Source: Pseudomonas prosekii
Lineage (GTDB): Bacteria > Pseudomonadota > Gammaproteobacteria > Pseudomonadales > Pseudomonadaceae
Reading direction: 5' to 3'
Assembly (NCBI RefSeq): GCF_900105155.1
Contig: NZ_LT629762.1
Coordinates: 3,201,001 to 3,265,000 of the forward strand
DNA: 64,000 nucleotides
Shown: positions 39,408 to 44,284 of the stretch, one piece after another
Layout of the letters: every line of letters begins with the position of its first letter
Position numbering within the stretch: the stretch's first letter is position 1
Program-made: the position numbers and the translations under genes
The notes under the pieces: model-generated
What the model was told of the DNA's origin: nothing
Database searches by the model: none
Seen by the model: only the letters and a program-made list of their open reading frames with translations

Positions 39408-40613
39408 TCACCCGGCCGTCAGCGCCCGATGCCGCCGGGTGATCAGCGCATTCAAGATGATCGCGCTGGCGCTCAATAGCAGAAAGCTCACCGCCAGAGT
39501 GGTCTGCAAATCAGTTGCGCTGAGGTTGATCAACGCGCTGATCAGTCCGCCGAAGATGAACACCAGTGTGTTGCCCGCCGACGCCGACGTGCCGGCCCTG
39601 TCCGGGAATATCTCCATGGCTTTCGAGGTCGCGACCGGCCGCGCAATGGTGGTGCCGGCAGTGCAGATGATCATCGGAACCAGCACCGTCGGCGTCGACA
39701 ACCCGAGCAGTTTCGACAATATCAGCATGACCAGCCCCGAAAAGAAGATCAGGCCAAGGCCGACGATGATCAGCGTGTTCGGCGCGATCCGGCCGCCGAG
39801 GATCCGCGCGATGATCCCGCCAATGATGTACGCCAGCCCGTAAAGCAGCAGCGTCAGCGAGAATTCGTAGGGCGAGAGCTGCAATTGATCCATGAAAATC
39901 AGCGGCGAGATGACGATGAAGGAGAAATGGCAGGCGAATGCAATGGCGGCAATCAACCAGTAACCGGTGAAACCGACGTCGCGGTAAACCACCCGGTATG
40001 ACTGGACGATACCTCGGTGCATAACGTTGGTCGGGCGCTGGTTCTCAAGGAAGAAGCAGGCTTTGAGAAACACCGCGCCGGCCAGCGCGATGAACACGAC
40101 AAAACTTCCAGGCCAGTCGAGCGCTTGTTGCAGCAACGTGCCGGCCAGCGGCGATATGGAAATGAAAATTCCGCTGGCGGTGACCATGAGGATTCTCAGC
40201 CGATCGCGCTCCTTGCCCGCGAACAAGTCCTGAACCAGCGCCTGGGTCAGCACAAAACATCCGCAGCCGATGGCCTGGATCATCCGGAACAGCAGGAACC
40301 AGGAATAATCGGTGGCTAACAGGCAGCCTGTCGCGCCGATTATCGATACCGCCATGCCCGCCAACAGCAAGCCCTTGCGCCCCATGCGGTCCGACAGTGG
40401 CCCGATCAGCAGTTGCGACAACGAAATGCCGACGGCGAACAGGCTGATGGAAAACGCGATGTCGGCGGGGCTGGTGCGGAAGTGCTCAGCCAATGCCGGA
40501 AATGAAGGCAACAGCACGTCCAGCGGAAAGACCCCGAGCAACACCATGGTCATCAGCAGAATGACCGCGACACGGCGTTTTTTAACACTCACAGCGGCGT
40601 TGTCTTCATTCAT
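39408..40613 (-). CDS. MFS exporter of the peptide locus (Bcr/CflA type)
   Basis: A 401-aa major-facilitator transporter with 12 membrane helices, starting at ATG 40613; the upstream extension to 40724 lies inside the oxygenase gene. Motif A-like LLIGPLSDRMGRKGLLLAG follows helix 2, and PFPDVLLPSF-like FPLDVLLPSFPALA is in helix 1, both typical of Bcr/CflA drug exporters. It overlaps the diiron oxygenase gene by 8 bp, so it is translationally coupled to the modifying enzymes. I infer export of the cluster product and possibly self-protection. Confidence 0.85.
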   Translation of the reverse strand: MNEDNAAVSVKKRRVAVILLMTMVLLGVFPLDVLLPSFPALAEHFRTSPADIAFSISLFAVGISLSQLLIGPLSDRMGRKGLLLAGMAVSIIGATGCLLATDYSWFLLFRMIQAIGCGCFVLTQALVQDLFAGKERDRLRILMVTASGIFISISPLAGTLLQQALDWPGSFVVFIALAGAVFLKACFFLENQRPTNVMHRGIVQSYRVVYRDVGFTGYWLIAAIAFACHFSFIVISPLIFMDQLQLSPYEFSLTLLLYGLAYIIGGIIARILGGRIAPNTLIIVGLGLIFFSGLVMLILSKLLGLSTPTVLVPMIICTAGTTIARPVATSKAMEIFPDRAGTSASAGNTLVFIFGGLISALINLSATDLQTTLAVSFLLLSASAIILNALITRRHRALTAG

Positions 40614-41577
40614 CAATGAGCCCTGCCTGCGCGAAAAGTTGTCGATTGCCGGGCAGGTCAAAAAATCCCGCCGTGTGCAGTGCCTTAAGCGTGGCGCCCG
40701 CCCCTGAACGCGCACGCGCTGCAACGGCGTTCATGCCCGTCAGGCCACCGAGGATGTCGGTGATGCAAACGGCATCCAGTTCGGCGCTGAGCAGGCTTTC
40801 CCTGAGCCATCGGTCATCGATTTCAAAAAACAGCAGGATGATTTCCACCAGCCAATGGGCGGCGAGGGTGCGCCGGGTGCCGGGCAGGTTCAGCCACACG
40901 TAATGGAACACTTGCGCAAAATAGCGACTGTGCCGAGCCTCGTCCGTGAGGTGATCCCTGAGCATTTCCTGAACACCGGACACCAGCAGGTCGCGGCACA
41001 GATCAAGCAGTTCGCGGGCGATGATCGTCTCCGAGACGAAACCGACCAGGAACAGCGCCAGCGCTTTGTGTTCGTTAGGGGCTCGGGCGAGCAGGTCGTT
41101 GAGCCGGGTGATTCGTCGTGGCATCAACGGCCGCGAGGTGATCCCGTACAGGTCGGCAATCTGCTCGGCGACGCTGTTGGAGAACAGCGCATGGAATCCT
41201 TCGTCGGTGTAGAGCTGTAACCCGGCGGTTTTCATGCGCAGCGGGATAGCGACGCCGAGTTCGTCGTGGACGATGGTTTCCACCGCGCGATTGACGATGC
41301 GGTGTTCCAGCAACGTGGTGTAGTCGAGGAAATACACCAAGTGATTGGCCGTCAGGCGATGAACCACCGCTGGGCCGGCAGCCTGGATACTCGGGTGATC
41401 GAGATAGGGCAGGAAACCCGGCGGAAACCAGTGCCGGTGGAGCAATTGGCGCTCCAGTTCCGGCGGTGATGGCAATAGATAGGTGTTGCCGCTCGTGCGC
41501 ACTGACGCGCGGTTGTTCCAGTCGCCAAGGGTAAAGTGCCCGACCGGGAACTCCGCCGCCGCAGGGTTGGTAGTCAT
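40606..41577 (-). CDS. AurF-type diiron oxygenase of the peptide locus
   Basis: A 323-aa protein of the p-aminobenzoate N-oxygenase (AurF) family, starting at ATG 41577, which overlaps the preceding stop as ATGA. All seven expected diiron ligands can be placed: Glu91, Glu126, His129 (EGFH), Glu183 (VSETIIA), His209, Glu213 and His216 (HLTDEARH). Their spacing closely follows AurF (first two Glu 35 apart; HxxxExxH). Relatives oxidise amines to hydroxylamines, nitroso or nitro groups. Substrate is unknown; the adjacent 23-aa peptide or a residue released from it is an inference. Confidence 0.85.
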   Translation of the reverse strand: MTTNPAAAEFPVGHFTLGDWNNRASVRTSGNTYLLPSPPELERQLLHRHWFPPGFLPYLDHPSIQAAGPAVVHRLTANHLVYFLDYTTLLEHRIVNRAVETIVHDELGVAIPLRMKTAGLQLYTDEGFHALFSNSVAEQIADLYGITSRPLMPRRITRLNDLLARAPNEHKALALFLVGFVSETIIARELLDLCRDLLVSGVQEMLRDHLTDEARHSRYFAQVFHYVWLNLPGTRRTLAAHWLVEIILLFFEIDDRWLRESLLSAELDAVCITDILGGLTGMNAVAARARSGAGATLKALHTAGFFDLPGNRQLFAQAGLIDE

Positions 41578-42650
41578 TGTTGCTGTCTCTGGTTCAGCAA
41601 CGCTTTCAGTTCCTTGCACATCACTTGCCCGTCGCTGCGGCCACAACCGACGAAAAACAACGGTTGTTCAGCATTGTCTTCAAGTCCGAGCAGCGCTTCG
41701 ACCTGATCGTCTTTCAGCGCGCCGGTCAGCCAGGTGCCCAAACCGAGGGAAGTAGCGACCAGTTGAAAGGTCTGGGAGATATGCCCGGCCTCGACGTAGG
41801 CCATTCGGTAGGCGCGCGAGTGTTGGTACTTCCACCACAACTTGTCGAAACGCGCGCTGATAAACAGACCGACCGGCAAGTTGTTGATGAAGTGTTGCCC
41901 GCACAAGAGTTGGCCCAGCGGCGCAACCGGCAAGGGATTGACGAAGCTCAGGGCGTGATCGGCTGCGTGGTAGGCGTAGAGTCCGGGTTCCAGGCACTCG
42001 ACGTTTTGCACGTGCACAAACCCTTCGCAGGCATTCAGTCCTCCACCCGAAGGGCTGCTGCGGCGTGCGCCGAGGCCGTCGGCGACTGAGTCGTCGAGAT
42101 CGTCTTCACGCTCTTTCAGATGGCCGAGCGACAGATAGAGCAGGGTGCTGAGGTGGTCGAGCGATACCGCGTCTCCAGTGAAAGAGCGGCAGGTTTTCCG
42201 ATTGACCAGGGCATCGGCCAGATAACCTTCCGGCAGGCGTGCAGGGGCGGGCAGGGCAATCAGCTTGCCGGTCGCGTGGCGGGTGTTATCCGCACCTGAG
42301 CCGCTGGAGGCCAATACTTCGTTGCAATGGTCCAGATAATGTCTCGACCATTCATGAATGTTCTTGGGTGTATATTCGCAAGGTATGTTTTTAGTGCCGA
42401 TATGAAATATCTTTGATAGTTCATCCCAGCCCCATTCGATTGCTCGCTGGGTGGACGTTATCAATATTCCAGTATTGAGAAACTGTGTGTCGATTATATT
42501 GTTGGTGTCGAACGCTCGGGGGTTGTCGATAAGTTGCGCGAGTCGCGTCGAGTATTCGAGGTTGAGTTCAAATTGCTTGTGGTTGCGGTAATCCCAGACT
42601 ATTTGACCGGGCGTGCGGGGAAGCATGAAGAGATGTGGGTTTATCTGCAT
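41574..42650 (-). CDS. SagB/ThcOx-family FMN dehydrogenase of the peptide locus
   Basis: A 358-aa protein. The N-terminal helical region (residues 1-140, with VWDYRNHKQFELNLEYSTRL near residue 18) is typical of SagB-type enzymes. The nitroreductase domain (residues about 145-358) has NRKTCRSFTGDAVSLDHL, RRSSPSGGGLNA (196-207), AGHISQTFQLVA (288-299) and SLGLGTWL (301-308). SagB enzymes oxidise azolines to azoles with YcaO partners, but no YcaO is here and the nearby peptide has no Cys or Ser. The first third is AT-richer than the backbone. No strong ribosome site is seen at ATG 42650. Confidence 0.85.
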   Translation of the reverse strand: MQINPHLFMLPRTPGQIVWDYRNHKQFELNLEYSTRLAQLIDNPRAFDTNNIIDTQFLNTGILITSTQRAIEWGWDELSKIFHIGTKNIPCEYTPKNIHEWSRHYLDHCNEVLASSGSGADNTRHATGKLIALPAPARLPEGYLADALVNRKTCRSFTGDAVSLDHLSTLLYLSLGHLKEREDDLDDSVADGLGARRSSPSGGGLNACEGFVHVQNVECLEPGLYAYHAADHALSFVNPLPVAPLGQLLCGQHFINNLPVGLFISARFDKLWWKYQHSRAYRMAYVEAGHISQTFQLVATSLGLGTWLTGALKDDQVEALLGLEDNAEQPLFFVGCGRSDGQVMCKELKALLNQRQQQ

Positions 42651-42683
42651 GAAGGGCTGTTCGCTCTGGCGGGGCCATAGAAA

Positions 42684-42712
42684 ACGCTGGGTAAGCCGGC
42701 ACTCCCCAGCGT
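42684..42712 (-). terminator. Hairpin after the peptide gene (attenuator or processing element)
   Basis: Read on the minus strand: ACGCTGGG (42712-42705), a 13-nt loop, CCCAGCGT (42691-42684), then a short T-run (TTT, C). It lies 9 bp past the peptide stop and 33 bp before the dehydrogenase start. A partial terminator here would give more peptide mRNA than enzyme mRNA, as is common in RiPP operons. Confidence 0.65.
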
Positions 42713-42721
42713 CTCATTTAC

Positions 42722-42793
42722 TTATCGGGCTTTCGGTGCAACCAGAAAAGCCAGGTTAGCGATTTTGTTGGTTTCCAGAGTAACTGCTTTCAT
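42722..42793 (-). CDS. 23-residue peptide, candidate modified-peptide precursor
   Basis: A 24-codon gene: ATG at 42793, TAA at 42724-42722. AAGGAG stands 8 nt upstream, a near-ideal ribosome site, and a sigma70-like promoter lies about 50 bp further up. The peptide starts MKAVTLETNK, continues with IANLA and ends FLVAPKAR. It has three Lys, one Arg, one Glu, two Thr and two Asn, and no Cys, Ser, Trp, Tyr or His. It directly precedes a SagB-type dehydrogenase, a diiron oxygenase and an exporter. PqqA-type precursors are of similar size, but the sequence is not PqqA. Its role as a precursor is inferred; a regulatory leader peptide is the main alternative. Confidence 0.72.
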   Translation of the reverse strand: MKAVTLETNKIANLAFLVAPKAR

Positions 42794-42845
42794 GTTGTGA
42801 ACTCCTTGTAAGTAATAGTGAGTGCCACTCCTTGGTGACAACTCA

Positions 42846-42873
42846 ATCATAGTTTGTAATGAGTTCTTATCAA
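42846..42873 (-). promoter_or_regulatory. Sigma70-like promoter of the peptide gene
   Basis: On the minus strand, -35 TTGATA (42873-42868), a 16-bp spacer and -10 TATGAT (42851-42846), predicting a transcript start near 42839 and a leader of about 45 nt before the peptide ATG. The surrounding DNA is AT-rich compared with the backbone. Confidence 0.7.
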
Positions 42874-43087
42874 GGAGAATATCGGTAGGAAATATCCAGT
42901 AATTTTGTGGGAGCTATCTTATGGGAGGTAAGTGCGTGTAAGTCTAATTCTTCAATTTGGAAGATATAGCGAAACTTCCTGCACGTTAGTAGGACGGCAA
43001 GTGTAAGACGCAGAGGATAACTGGAAGGGGATTTCGATGGCGGAGAATGAGCGGGGAGCCTGCTGGCCCCCCGTCAAACCGGCGTAA

Positions 43088-44284
43088 TCAGCTGTTTGGC
43101 AGCAGACGACAGGTGATGCTTTTGATGTAGCGGGTTTCGGCGATGGCTGGGTGAACCGGGTGGTCCGGGCCCTGACCGCCACGTTCGAGCATCTGGATGT
43201 TGCGATCCAGGTGACGGGCGCTGGTCAGCAGGATGTTCTGCAGGTCATCTTCCGGCAGGTGCATCGAGCACGAAGCGCTGACGAGGATGCCGTCCTTGGT
43301 CAGCAGGCGCATGGCTTGCTCGTTCAGGCGACGGTAAGCGCCTTCGCCGTTCTTCATGTCTTTCTTGCGTTTGATGAAGGCCGGCGGATCGGCAACGATC
43401 ACGTCGAAACGTTCTTCGCTGGCCTTCAGCTCTTTCAGGGCTTCGAACACGTCGCCTTCGATGCAGGTCATTTTCTCGGCAAAGCCGTTCAGCGCAGCGT
43501 TGCGCTCGACGCCGTCGAGGGCGAAGGCCGATGCATCGACGCAGAACACTTCGTTGGCGCCGAAAGCGGCAGCCTGCACGCCCCAGCCACCGATGTAGCT
43601 ATAGAGGTCGAGGACGCGTTTGCCTTTGACATACGGTGCCAGGCGCGCGCGGTTCATGCGGTGGTCGTAGAACCAGCCGGTTTTCTGGCCCTGAATGACC
43701 GGCGCTTCGAACTTCACGCCGTTCTCTTCCAAGGCAACCCATTCCGGCACCAGGCCGAACACGGTTTCGACGTAGCGGTTGAGGCCTTCGGCGTCGCGCG
43801 CGGCGGAATCGTTCTTGAACAGAATGCCGCTTGGCTTGAGCACTTGGGTCAACGCGGCGATCACGTCTTCTTTATGCGCTTCCATGGTCGCCGAAGCGAT
43901 TTGCACCACGAGGATGTCGCCGAAACGGTCGACTACCAGGCCCGGCAACAGGTCGGAATCACCGTAGACCAGACGATAGAACGGCTTGTCGAACAGGCGA
44001 TCGCGCAGCGACAACGCGACGTTGATGCGGTGCACCAGCAGCGATTTGTCCAGCGGCAACTTGATGTCGCGCGACAGCAGGCGCGCACAGATCAGGTTGT
44101 TCGGGCTCATGGCGACGATGCCCAGCGGCTTGCCGCCGGCAGCTTCGAGGATCGCCTGATCGCCGGCCTTGAAGCCGTGCAAAGGAGTCGCGGCTACATC
44201 GATTTCGTTGCTGTAGACCCACAAGTGGCCGTTTCGCAGGCGACGGTCGGCGTTGGCTTTGAGGCGCAGGCTAGGCAGGGACAT
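43088..44284 (-). CDS. rlmI: 23S rRNA (cytosine1962-C5)-methyltransferase family protein
   Basis: A 398-aa class I SAM methyltransferase. The N-terminal PUA domain (residues about 1-80: LPSLRLKANADRRLRNGHLWVYSNEI) is followed by an EEHD-like middle domain and the catalytic domain: SAM motif VLDLYSYIGGWGVQAAAFGA (near residue 225) and DVIVADPPAFIKRKKDM. The catalytic Cys is in VSASCSMHLPEDDL. RlmI methylates C1962 of 23S rRNA in E. coli. Here it marks the right flank of the inserted peptide locus. Confidence 0.9.
   Translation of the reverse strand: MSLPSLRLKANADRRLRNGHLWVYSNEIDVAATPLHGFKAGDQAILEAAGGKPLGIVAMSPNNLICARLLSRDIKLPLDKSLLVHRINVALSLRDRLFDKPFYRLVYGDSDLLPGLVVDRFGDILVVQIASATMEAHKEDVIAALTQVLKPSGILFKNDSAARDAEGLNRYVETVFGLVPEWVALEENGVKFEAPVIQGQKTGWFYDHRMNRARLAPYVKGKRVLDLYSYIGGWGVQAAAFGANEVFCVDASAFALDGVERNAALNGFAEKMTCIEGDVFEALKELKASEERFDVIVADPPAFIKRKKDMKNGEGAYRRLNEQAMRLLTKDGILVSASCSMHLPEDDLQNILLTSARHLDRNIQMLERGGQGPDHPVHPAIAETRYIKSITCRLLPNS

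What the first reader, a model, noticed from the sequence alone, without database searches (positions are those of the whole stretch)
39408..42873. Candidate minimal RiPP-like cluster: 23-aa peptide, SagB-type dehydrogenase, AurF-type diiron oxygenase, MFS exporter
Seen: a promoter, a 72-bp peptide gene with a strong ribosome site, a hairpin, then three enzyme/transport genes joined by 4- and 8-bp overlaps, all minus strand. Known: SagB/ThcOx enzymes are flavin oxidases of peptide natural products, AurF enzymes N-oxygenate amines, and Bcr/CflA exporters often move such products. Inferred: the peptide is processed to a small oxidised product. The set lacks YcaO, radical SAM, LanM and protease genes, so it does not match a RiPP class I know.
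Basis: partly seen in the sequence, partly recalled or inferred. Interest (0 to 1): 0.92.

Follow-up and report, generated by a model that had tools for sequence, protein, structure and literature searches.

The report
Oxidised mini-peptide pathway in Pseudomonas
A four-gene Pseudomonas unit appears to make a 23-residue peptide, oxidise it with a flavin enzyme and a two-iron enzyme, and export a small product; relatives that lack the iron enzyme also lack one particular asparagine in the peptide, which hints at where that enzyme acts.

Summary
On the minus strand lie a 23-aa ORF, a conserved RNA hairpin, a SagB-type dehydrogenase, an AurF-family diiron protein and a Bcr/CflA-like exporter. The short ORF is a real gene: a matching ORF precedes the SagB gene in 141 of 141 unique loci with intact SagB, and it is under purifying selection in its own frame only. 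Its start, roughly MKx[IV]x[LIVM]E, stays with SagB even where the partner genes change (AurF, carbamoyltransferase, methyltransferase or none). N13 is present in 128 of 128 loci with AurF and absent in the 12 Pseudomonas loci without any AurF match and in two loci from other families; the main AurF-less group may be a single evolutionary event. One distant precursor carries its core twice. Best reading: a new RiPP-like class with a very short leader and no YcaO in the unit; SagB dehydrogenates the peptide, AurF oxygenates it at or near N13, host proteases release a small product, and the MFS pump exports it. Chemistry and product are not shown. Nearest published precedent: the PflD nitroreductase domain, which makes dehydro-Phe (PMC12636437).

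The parts
42846..42873 (-). predicted sigma-70 promoter (TTGATA, 16 nt, TATGAT)
   Evidence: 10 of 12 consensus bases; 2 sites found against 1.6 expected, so weak alone; the stretch is kept in L003, L004, L005 and L010
42823..42840 (-). 5' hairpin TGTCAC-CAAGGA-GTGGCA just after the -10 box
   Evidence: 3 of 6 pairs with double changes in 21 sequences; found by script before the ATG
42802..42807 (-). ribosome binding site AAGGAG
   Evidence: sequence
42722..42793 (-). 23-aa precursor peptide gene, stop codon included
42681..42715 (-). hairpin between peptide and SagB genes, loop AGTGCCGGC
   Evidence: 8 of 9 pairs with double changes in 23 sequences, covariation 0.709 against 0.241 in shuffles; model match unique in the genome
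41574..42650 (-). SagB-type FMN dehydrogenase, 358 aa, with an N-terminal domain of RRE-like strand-helix order
40606..41577 (-). AurF-family diiron oxygenase, 323 aa
39408..40613 (-). MFS exporter close to Bcr/CflA, 401 aa

Best explanation
A RiPP-like pathway with an unusually short precursor. Shown: a conserved, selected peptide gene that goes with SagB, and usually with AurF and MFS genes. Inferred: (1) the N-terminal strand MKxIxLE is a minimal leader bound by the RRE-like N-terminal domain of the SagB enzyme; (2) the FMN dehydrogenase oxidises the core behind it, most likely by Calpha-Cbeta desaturation, as no YcaO is in the unit to make azolines; (3) the AurF-family diiron enzyme oxygenates the peptide at or next to Asn13; (4) housekeeping proteases, perhaps TldD/PmbA-type, trim it; (5) the MFS pump exports the small product. 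The hairpin behind the peptide gene would keep precursor abundant and enzymes scarce.
For: Peptide before SagB in 141 of 141 unique intact-SagB loci; dN/dS 0.40 in frame against 1.03 and 3.25 in the shifted frames. N-terminal motif kept while partners change: AurF and MFS; MFS only (L221, L222, L247, L248, L288-L290); carbamoyltransferase and MFS (L249); methyltransferase and carbamoyltransferase (L251, L252). N13 in 128 of 128 with AurF, 0 of 12 without any AurF match, nor in L308 and L309. L308 precursor repeats its core. Seven AurF ligand positions invariant in 48 homologues; model nearest to AurF 2jcd. SagB model nearest to the peptide oxidase ThcOx and to BmdC, whose N-terminal domain is RRE-like (PMC8795117, passages). 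Precedent for desaturation by such an enzyme without YcaO: PflD (PMC12636437, passages). Three TldD/PmbA-family matches in the genome.
Against: No chemistry or product is shown. The AurF-less group fits one origin, so N13 and AurF may have been lost together only once; the type C and D peptides are longer and their position 13 may not be equivalent (type C has N at 11 and 12). No RRE found by profile searches; SagB model only moderate, pLDDT 78.8. Codons 2-14, which hold the proposed leader, are less constrained (0.51) than codons 15-23 (0.18) in the 23-aa class. Type D peptides have Q, not E, at position 7. AurF enzymes are known on small aryl amines (recalled), not on peptides. One YcaO gene exists elsewhere in the genome.
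Confidence: 0.68

Rival explanations
1. The short ORF is a regulatory leader peptide: ribosome stalling or attenuation on it, with the hairpin, controls a small-molecule oxidation and export operon, and SagB and AurF act on some other metabolite.
For: Position before a hairpin that has a T-rich tail in 59 of 129 loci; the hairpin covaries and keeps its loop; exporters are often under such control (recalled).
Against: The invariant residues sit at fixed distance from the start, while length varies (21-26 aa, one frameshifted 36). Residue 13 follows the presence of AurF. Related SagB genes follow 33-58-aa peptides with the same start and one with a doubled core.
Confidence: 0.12
2. The peptide is a small subunit or activator of the SagB enzyme, as AlbB is for the cyclodipeptide oxidase AlbA, and the real substrate is another small molecule.
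For: AlbAB filaments are among the structural matches of the SagB model (8uc3); the peptide goes with SagB in every intact locus.
Against: Only the start is common to all types, the rest is remodelled with each partner enzyme; the duplicated core of L308. AlbB is a far larger protein (recalled).
Confidence: 0.08
3. The peptide is the substrate, but AurF N-oxygenates another group, such as the Lys side chain or the new N-terminus after trimming, and N13 only serves binding.
For: AurF-family enzymes N-oxygenate amines (recalled; PDB matches are AurF and CmlI); K at position 21 in 110 of 129 loci.
Against: Position 21 is not invariant, N13 is; the seven AurF-less type B peptides also end in Lys.
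Confidence: 0.3

Closest known systems
pfl and pos RiPP clusters of Pseudomonas (PMC12636437, passages; Os17 OS3 cluster, PMC7726476, outline and passages)
   Same: Pseudomonas; precursor peptide with a YcaO-free nitroreductase/SagB-type enzyme; transporter; no protease in the cluster; the PflD nitroreductase domain makes Z-dehydro-Phe
   Different: Precursor about 85 aa of nitrile-hydratase-leader type in Os17; SagB domain fused to an MNIO in a 650-aa protein; HEXXH enzyme and GNAT; no AurF
Thiazole/oxazole-modified peptides with SagB/McbC/ThcOx dehydrogenases
   Same: SagB family by TIGR03605 above cut-off; fold near ThcOx and McbC
   Different: No YcaO or docking protein in the unit; the window's peptide has no Cys or Ser
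TIGR04511 'putative peptide maturation dehydrogenase'
   Same: Best NCBIfam model for this SagB (163.6 bits) and for the type C/D ones tested
   Different: All below the curated cut-off of 240
AurF and CmlI arylamine N-oxygenases
   Same: Fold and metal-ligand positions
   Different: 20-23% identity in the structural matches; encoded with a peptide gene, not with an arylamine pathway
PQQ biosynthesis (PqqA, 22-24 aa; recalled)
   Same: Precursor of similar size before its enzymes
   Different: No radical SAM enzyme; no E-x3-Y pair in the window's peptide (motif recalled)

Membership tests
RiPP pathway (general) | small conserved gene-encoded precursor beside modifying enzymes | tested here: met
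   141 of 141 unique intact-SagB loci; purifying selection in frame
RiPP pathway (general) | leader and core division, with leader recognition | tested here: inconclusive
   start kept and rest remodelled, but no RRE by profile search
RiPP pathway (general) | post-translational modification of the precursor | not testable with these tools
   needs mass spectrometry
Azole peptides (TOMM/LAP) | SagB-family dehydrogenase | tested here: met
   TIGR03605 115 bits, cut-off 78.4
Azole peptides (TOMM/LAP) | YcaO cyclodehydratase in the cluster | tested here: not met
   none among the four products and two flanking proteins; one YcaO gene elsewhere in the genome
AurF family | PF11583 above cut-off, fold and seven ligand positions | tested here: met
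   that these positions bind iron is recalled from AurF
AurF family | N-oxygenation of an aryl amine | not testable with these tools
   substrate unknown
pfl/pos RiPP class | MNIO fused to the nitroreductase, plus HEXXH enzyme | tested here: not met
   358-aa SagB with only a nitroreductase domain; no HEXXH gene in the unit
Attenuator or arrest leader peptide | conserved residues anchored to the stop codon | tested here: not met
   invariants E7 and N13 at fixed distance from the start, variable length
Attenuator or arrest leader peptide | terminator-like hairpin downstream | tested here: inconclusive
   scan found none; T-rich tail in 59 of 129 loci

The most novel reading that the evidence does not exclude
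A new RiPP class: a seven-residue leader (MKxIxLE) recruits a SagB dehydrogenase that works without YcaO, and an AurF-family diiron enzyme oxygenates the invariant Asn13 of a ribosomal peptide. Swapping the partner enzymes (AurF, carbamoyltransferase, methyltransferase or none) behind the same leader-SagB pair yields different exported small products.
Probability: 0.42. Interest if true: 0.86.

Novelty: new variant of a known kind. Interest (0 to 1): 0.74.

Why it matters
If true, it is one of the smallest precursor-enzyme systems known, puts an AurF-type diiron oxygenase on a ribosomal peptide, and says what some SagB enzymes without YcaO do. The set is small enough to rebuild in E. coli, and nature supplies a control: relatives without AurF and without N13. 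It is common: strong matches to this AurF (E below 1e-30, broken copies included) occur in 84 of 298 sampled genomes of the genus (my count of the listing). Outside the genus no AurF of this kind was found among 368 other genomes of the class or in the phylum sample (299 genomes, 4 matches, all in the genus).

Tried and rejected
Rfam: no match at E up to 1 for window 42600-43090. Hairpin as a genome-wide repeat: rejected, one strong model match in the genome, the second (E 0.95) being the same place on the other strand; the typed pattern with up to 3 mismatches hit 14 places against 10 for the reversed control, only this one without mismatch. My own first view that most copies lack a T-rich tail was too strong: 59 of 129 have one. 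Identity with the Os17 OS3 / pfl cluster: rejected, different precursor and enzymes. A12 as an invariant: rejected, L292 has E12 N13. RRE by profile: nothing. Nitrilobacillins (PMC13060819, passages): different enzymes. Literature: the searches listed no paper on a SagB plus AurF peptide cluster; the library holds open-licence PMC papers only.

Dropped rows and biases. Hairpin alignment A5 holds 23 of the 30 loci prepared; left out were L003 and L015 (near copies) and L033, L050, L051, L054, L060 (hairpin or loop differs). A6 holds 21 of the 30. The pattern required E7 and the A-N pair, so its 129 of 129 there is circular; one search used a looser pattern (position 7 E or Q, positions 12-13 free). 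One search removed exact copies only (same first 400 nt of SagB), so near relatives remain, and put 20 further rows aside as lacking an intact SagB; one of its 13 rows without intact AurF (L039, broken frame) still has N13. AurF-bearing loci were recruited mostly by AurF, the others by SagB or by the flanking methyltransferase. Type B rests on 7 loci.
Full report
WHAT IS THERE. The window lies in a single-contig genome of 6,091,955 bases; the 80 kept relatives of its AurF in named genomes are all Pseudomonas.

IS THE SHORT ORF REAL? An AurF search of 298 genomes of the genus gave 84 with E below 1e-30 (my count). Loci were fetched, and a scan of the genome-contig collection gave 142 relatives, of which the best 80 were kept. 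In a first pass over 141 loci, copies included, the ORF was missing in four: L035 (no SagB, broken AurF), L036 and L098 (contig end), L041 (broken SagB); 117 of 141 have the full set between the methyltransferase and ilvD. Removing copies left 129 loci with 88 distinct peptides; in the 23-aa class dN/dS is 0.40 in frame (0.51 for codons 2-14, 0.18 for codons 15-23) against 1.03 and 3.25 in the shifted frames (pairs are not independent). A later pass with a looser pattern found the peptide in 141 of 141 unique loci with intact SagB, with 20 rows put aside. Control: M..[IV].[LIVM]E occurs in 112 of 13,371 distinct short ATG ORFs; 108 of the 112 lie within 400 nt before a SagB match on the same strand, and of the other four one is the frameshifted peptide of a broken locus, L045.

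A NATURAL EXPERIMENT. Of 30 genomes with only weak AurF matches, the same chromosomal site held a SagB in 2, only an MFS in 10 and neither in 18. With SagB searches this grew to seven genomes with peptide, SagB and MFS but no AurF at that site: MNAIVLESKALAAFALIGMPK (L221), MNAIFLESKALAAFALIGMPK (L288), MKTVILESKELAAFSLIGMPK (L248), MEKINLEHKTSVGFHVMLGTSK (L222), MAKIKLEHEVSAGHHTMLGTLK (L289), MEKIKLEQAVSAGHHALLGTSK (L290), MKKVQLEKNLAVHHHAMLSTPK (L247). They keep [IV]4, L6 and E7 (K2 in only two of them), and none has N13. Compare L032 and L293, which have AurF: ESKALANW against ESKALAAF. Over all unique intact-SagB loci, the 128 with AurF have N13 in 128, E7 in 128 (pattern-conditioned) and A12 in 127; of the 13 without an intact AurF, L039 (broken AurF frame) has N13 and 12 do not. 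In the SagB tree the forms with and without AurF make one supported group (100/99); the AurF-less ones fit a single origin (78/99; 81% of 200 bootstrap trees; 41/2 and 42% with four of them). The association is thus strong in number but perhaps one event.

OTHER PARTNERS. Elsewhere in the genus, SagB relatives (32-40% identity) follow longer peptides with a similar start: MKRVTIEPTLNNQSNDAYQTPHFSIK... before SagB, a carbamoyltransferase and an MFS (L249; L250 alike), and MKKIIMQSHLSSLSNDAYHILV... or MRKINLQTRLTALSNNAYNTL... before SagB, a methyltransferase and a carbamoyltransferase (L251, L252; L291 alike by ORF order), the last type with Q at position 7. Among 244 genomes of the order, three outside the genus matched the SagB profile. 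L308 has MKKVEVEMKKFCALMPVMKKSNVETKKFCALMPVMQKK, with its core twice; L309 has MKRVYIEDTAPYALGVAVAVYTTC; L310 showed no such peptide; no AurF match in the three. A core repeated behind one start motif is what a precursor, rather than a regulator, would show.

ENZYMES. The AurF model (pLDDT 91.8) matches AurF 2jcd at E 3.6e-7; seven E/H positions are invariant in 48 homologues, and that they are the iron ligands is recalled from AurF. The SagB model is moderate (78.8); its best matches are ThcOx, BmdC and other nitroreductase-family proteins (by sequence). Its N-terminal order of three strands and then helices resembles the RRE-like domain described for BmdC (PMC8795117, passages); profile searches found no RRE. 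A WWKYxHSRxY motif is in 80 of 80 SagB proteins checked; its likeness to the Lys-Tyr motif of azoline dehydrogenases is recalled.

RNA FEATURES. Between peptide and SagB a 9-bp hairpin covaries (8 of 9 pairs with double changes in 23 chosen loci; covariation 0.709 against 0.241 in shuffles, 0 of 500 as high), and GnGCCGGC stands within 70 nt of the stop in 101 of 129 loci. Its model has one strong match in the genome and it is not in Rfam. A T-rich tail is present in 59 of 129, so partial termination or processing are both possible. Against a special fold: the window's 203-nt leader folds no better than 13 of 200 shuffles. A second hairpin lies just after the predicted -10 box. An abundant, stable peptide mRNA with weaker enzyme expression would fit; this is inference.

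MECHANISM, WITH STATUS. Leader recognition by SagB: inferred from motif-SagB pairing. Dehydrogenation of the core: inferred from the family and from PflD, whose nitroreductase domain makes Z-dehydro-Phe, in a preprint that calls YcaO-free nitroreductases of RiPP clusters rare and uncharacterised (PMC12636437, passages). AurF action at or near N13: inferred from co-occurrence. Trimming by TldD/PmbA-type proteases: three such matches in the genome, role assumed. Export by MFS: inferred from the family. A YcaO gene lies about 0.33 Mb away; a part for it is not excluded.

VERDICT. A well-supported candidate for a new RiPP-like class, built of known enzyme families, with a testable residue-to-enzyme assignment. 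Rated a new variant of a known kind, since nothing chemical has been shown.

Noticed in passing
L249, L250, L251, L252, L291: Related peptide-SagB units with a carbamoyltransferase, and in L251 and L252 also a methyltransferase, whose peptides share an SN[DN]AY stretch; probably a sister class.
   Followed up: partly
L308:4408-5650: A SagB relative in another family of the order, preceded by a 38-aa peptide with its core (KKFCALMPVM) twice.
   Followed up: partly
L223-L232 (MTase-ilvD site): Ten genomes keep only the MFS gene at the site, probably remains of lost units; others have nothing between the two flanking genes but 262-1401 nt.
   Followed up: partly
L039 and L257 (genome G189): This genome has two copies of the unit with the same peptide MKEVKMESSKLANLAHLVRKAQ, one with a broken AurF frame.
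   Followed up: no
window 42681-42715 (-): A hairpin with an almost invariant GnGCCGGC loop; a conserved loop is unusual for a plain terminator and may bind something.
   Followed up: partly
G061, G108, G079, G083, G183, G220 (list): Weaker SagB-profile matches in open frames of 655-737 codons, the size of the pfl/pos MNIO-nitroreductase fusions; identity not checked.
   Followed up: no
G000:C1:3576776-3577783 (-), outside the window: A YcaO-family gene in an open frame of 734 codons, with no link to the unit seen.
   Followed up: no
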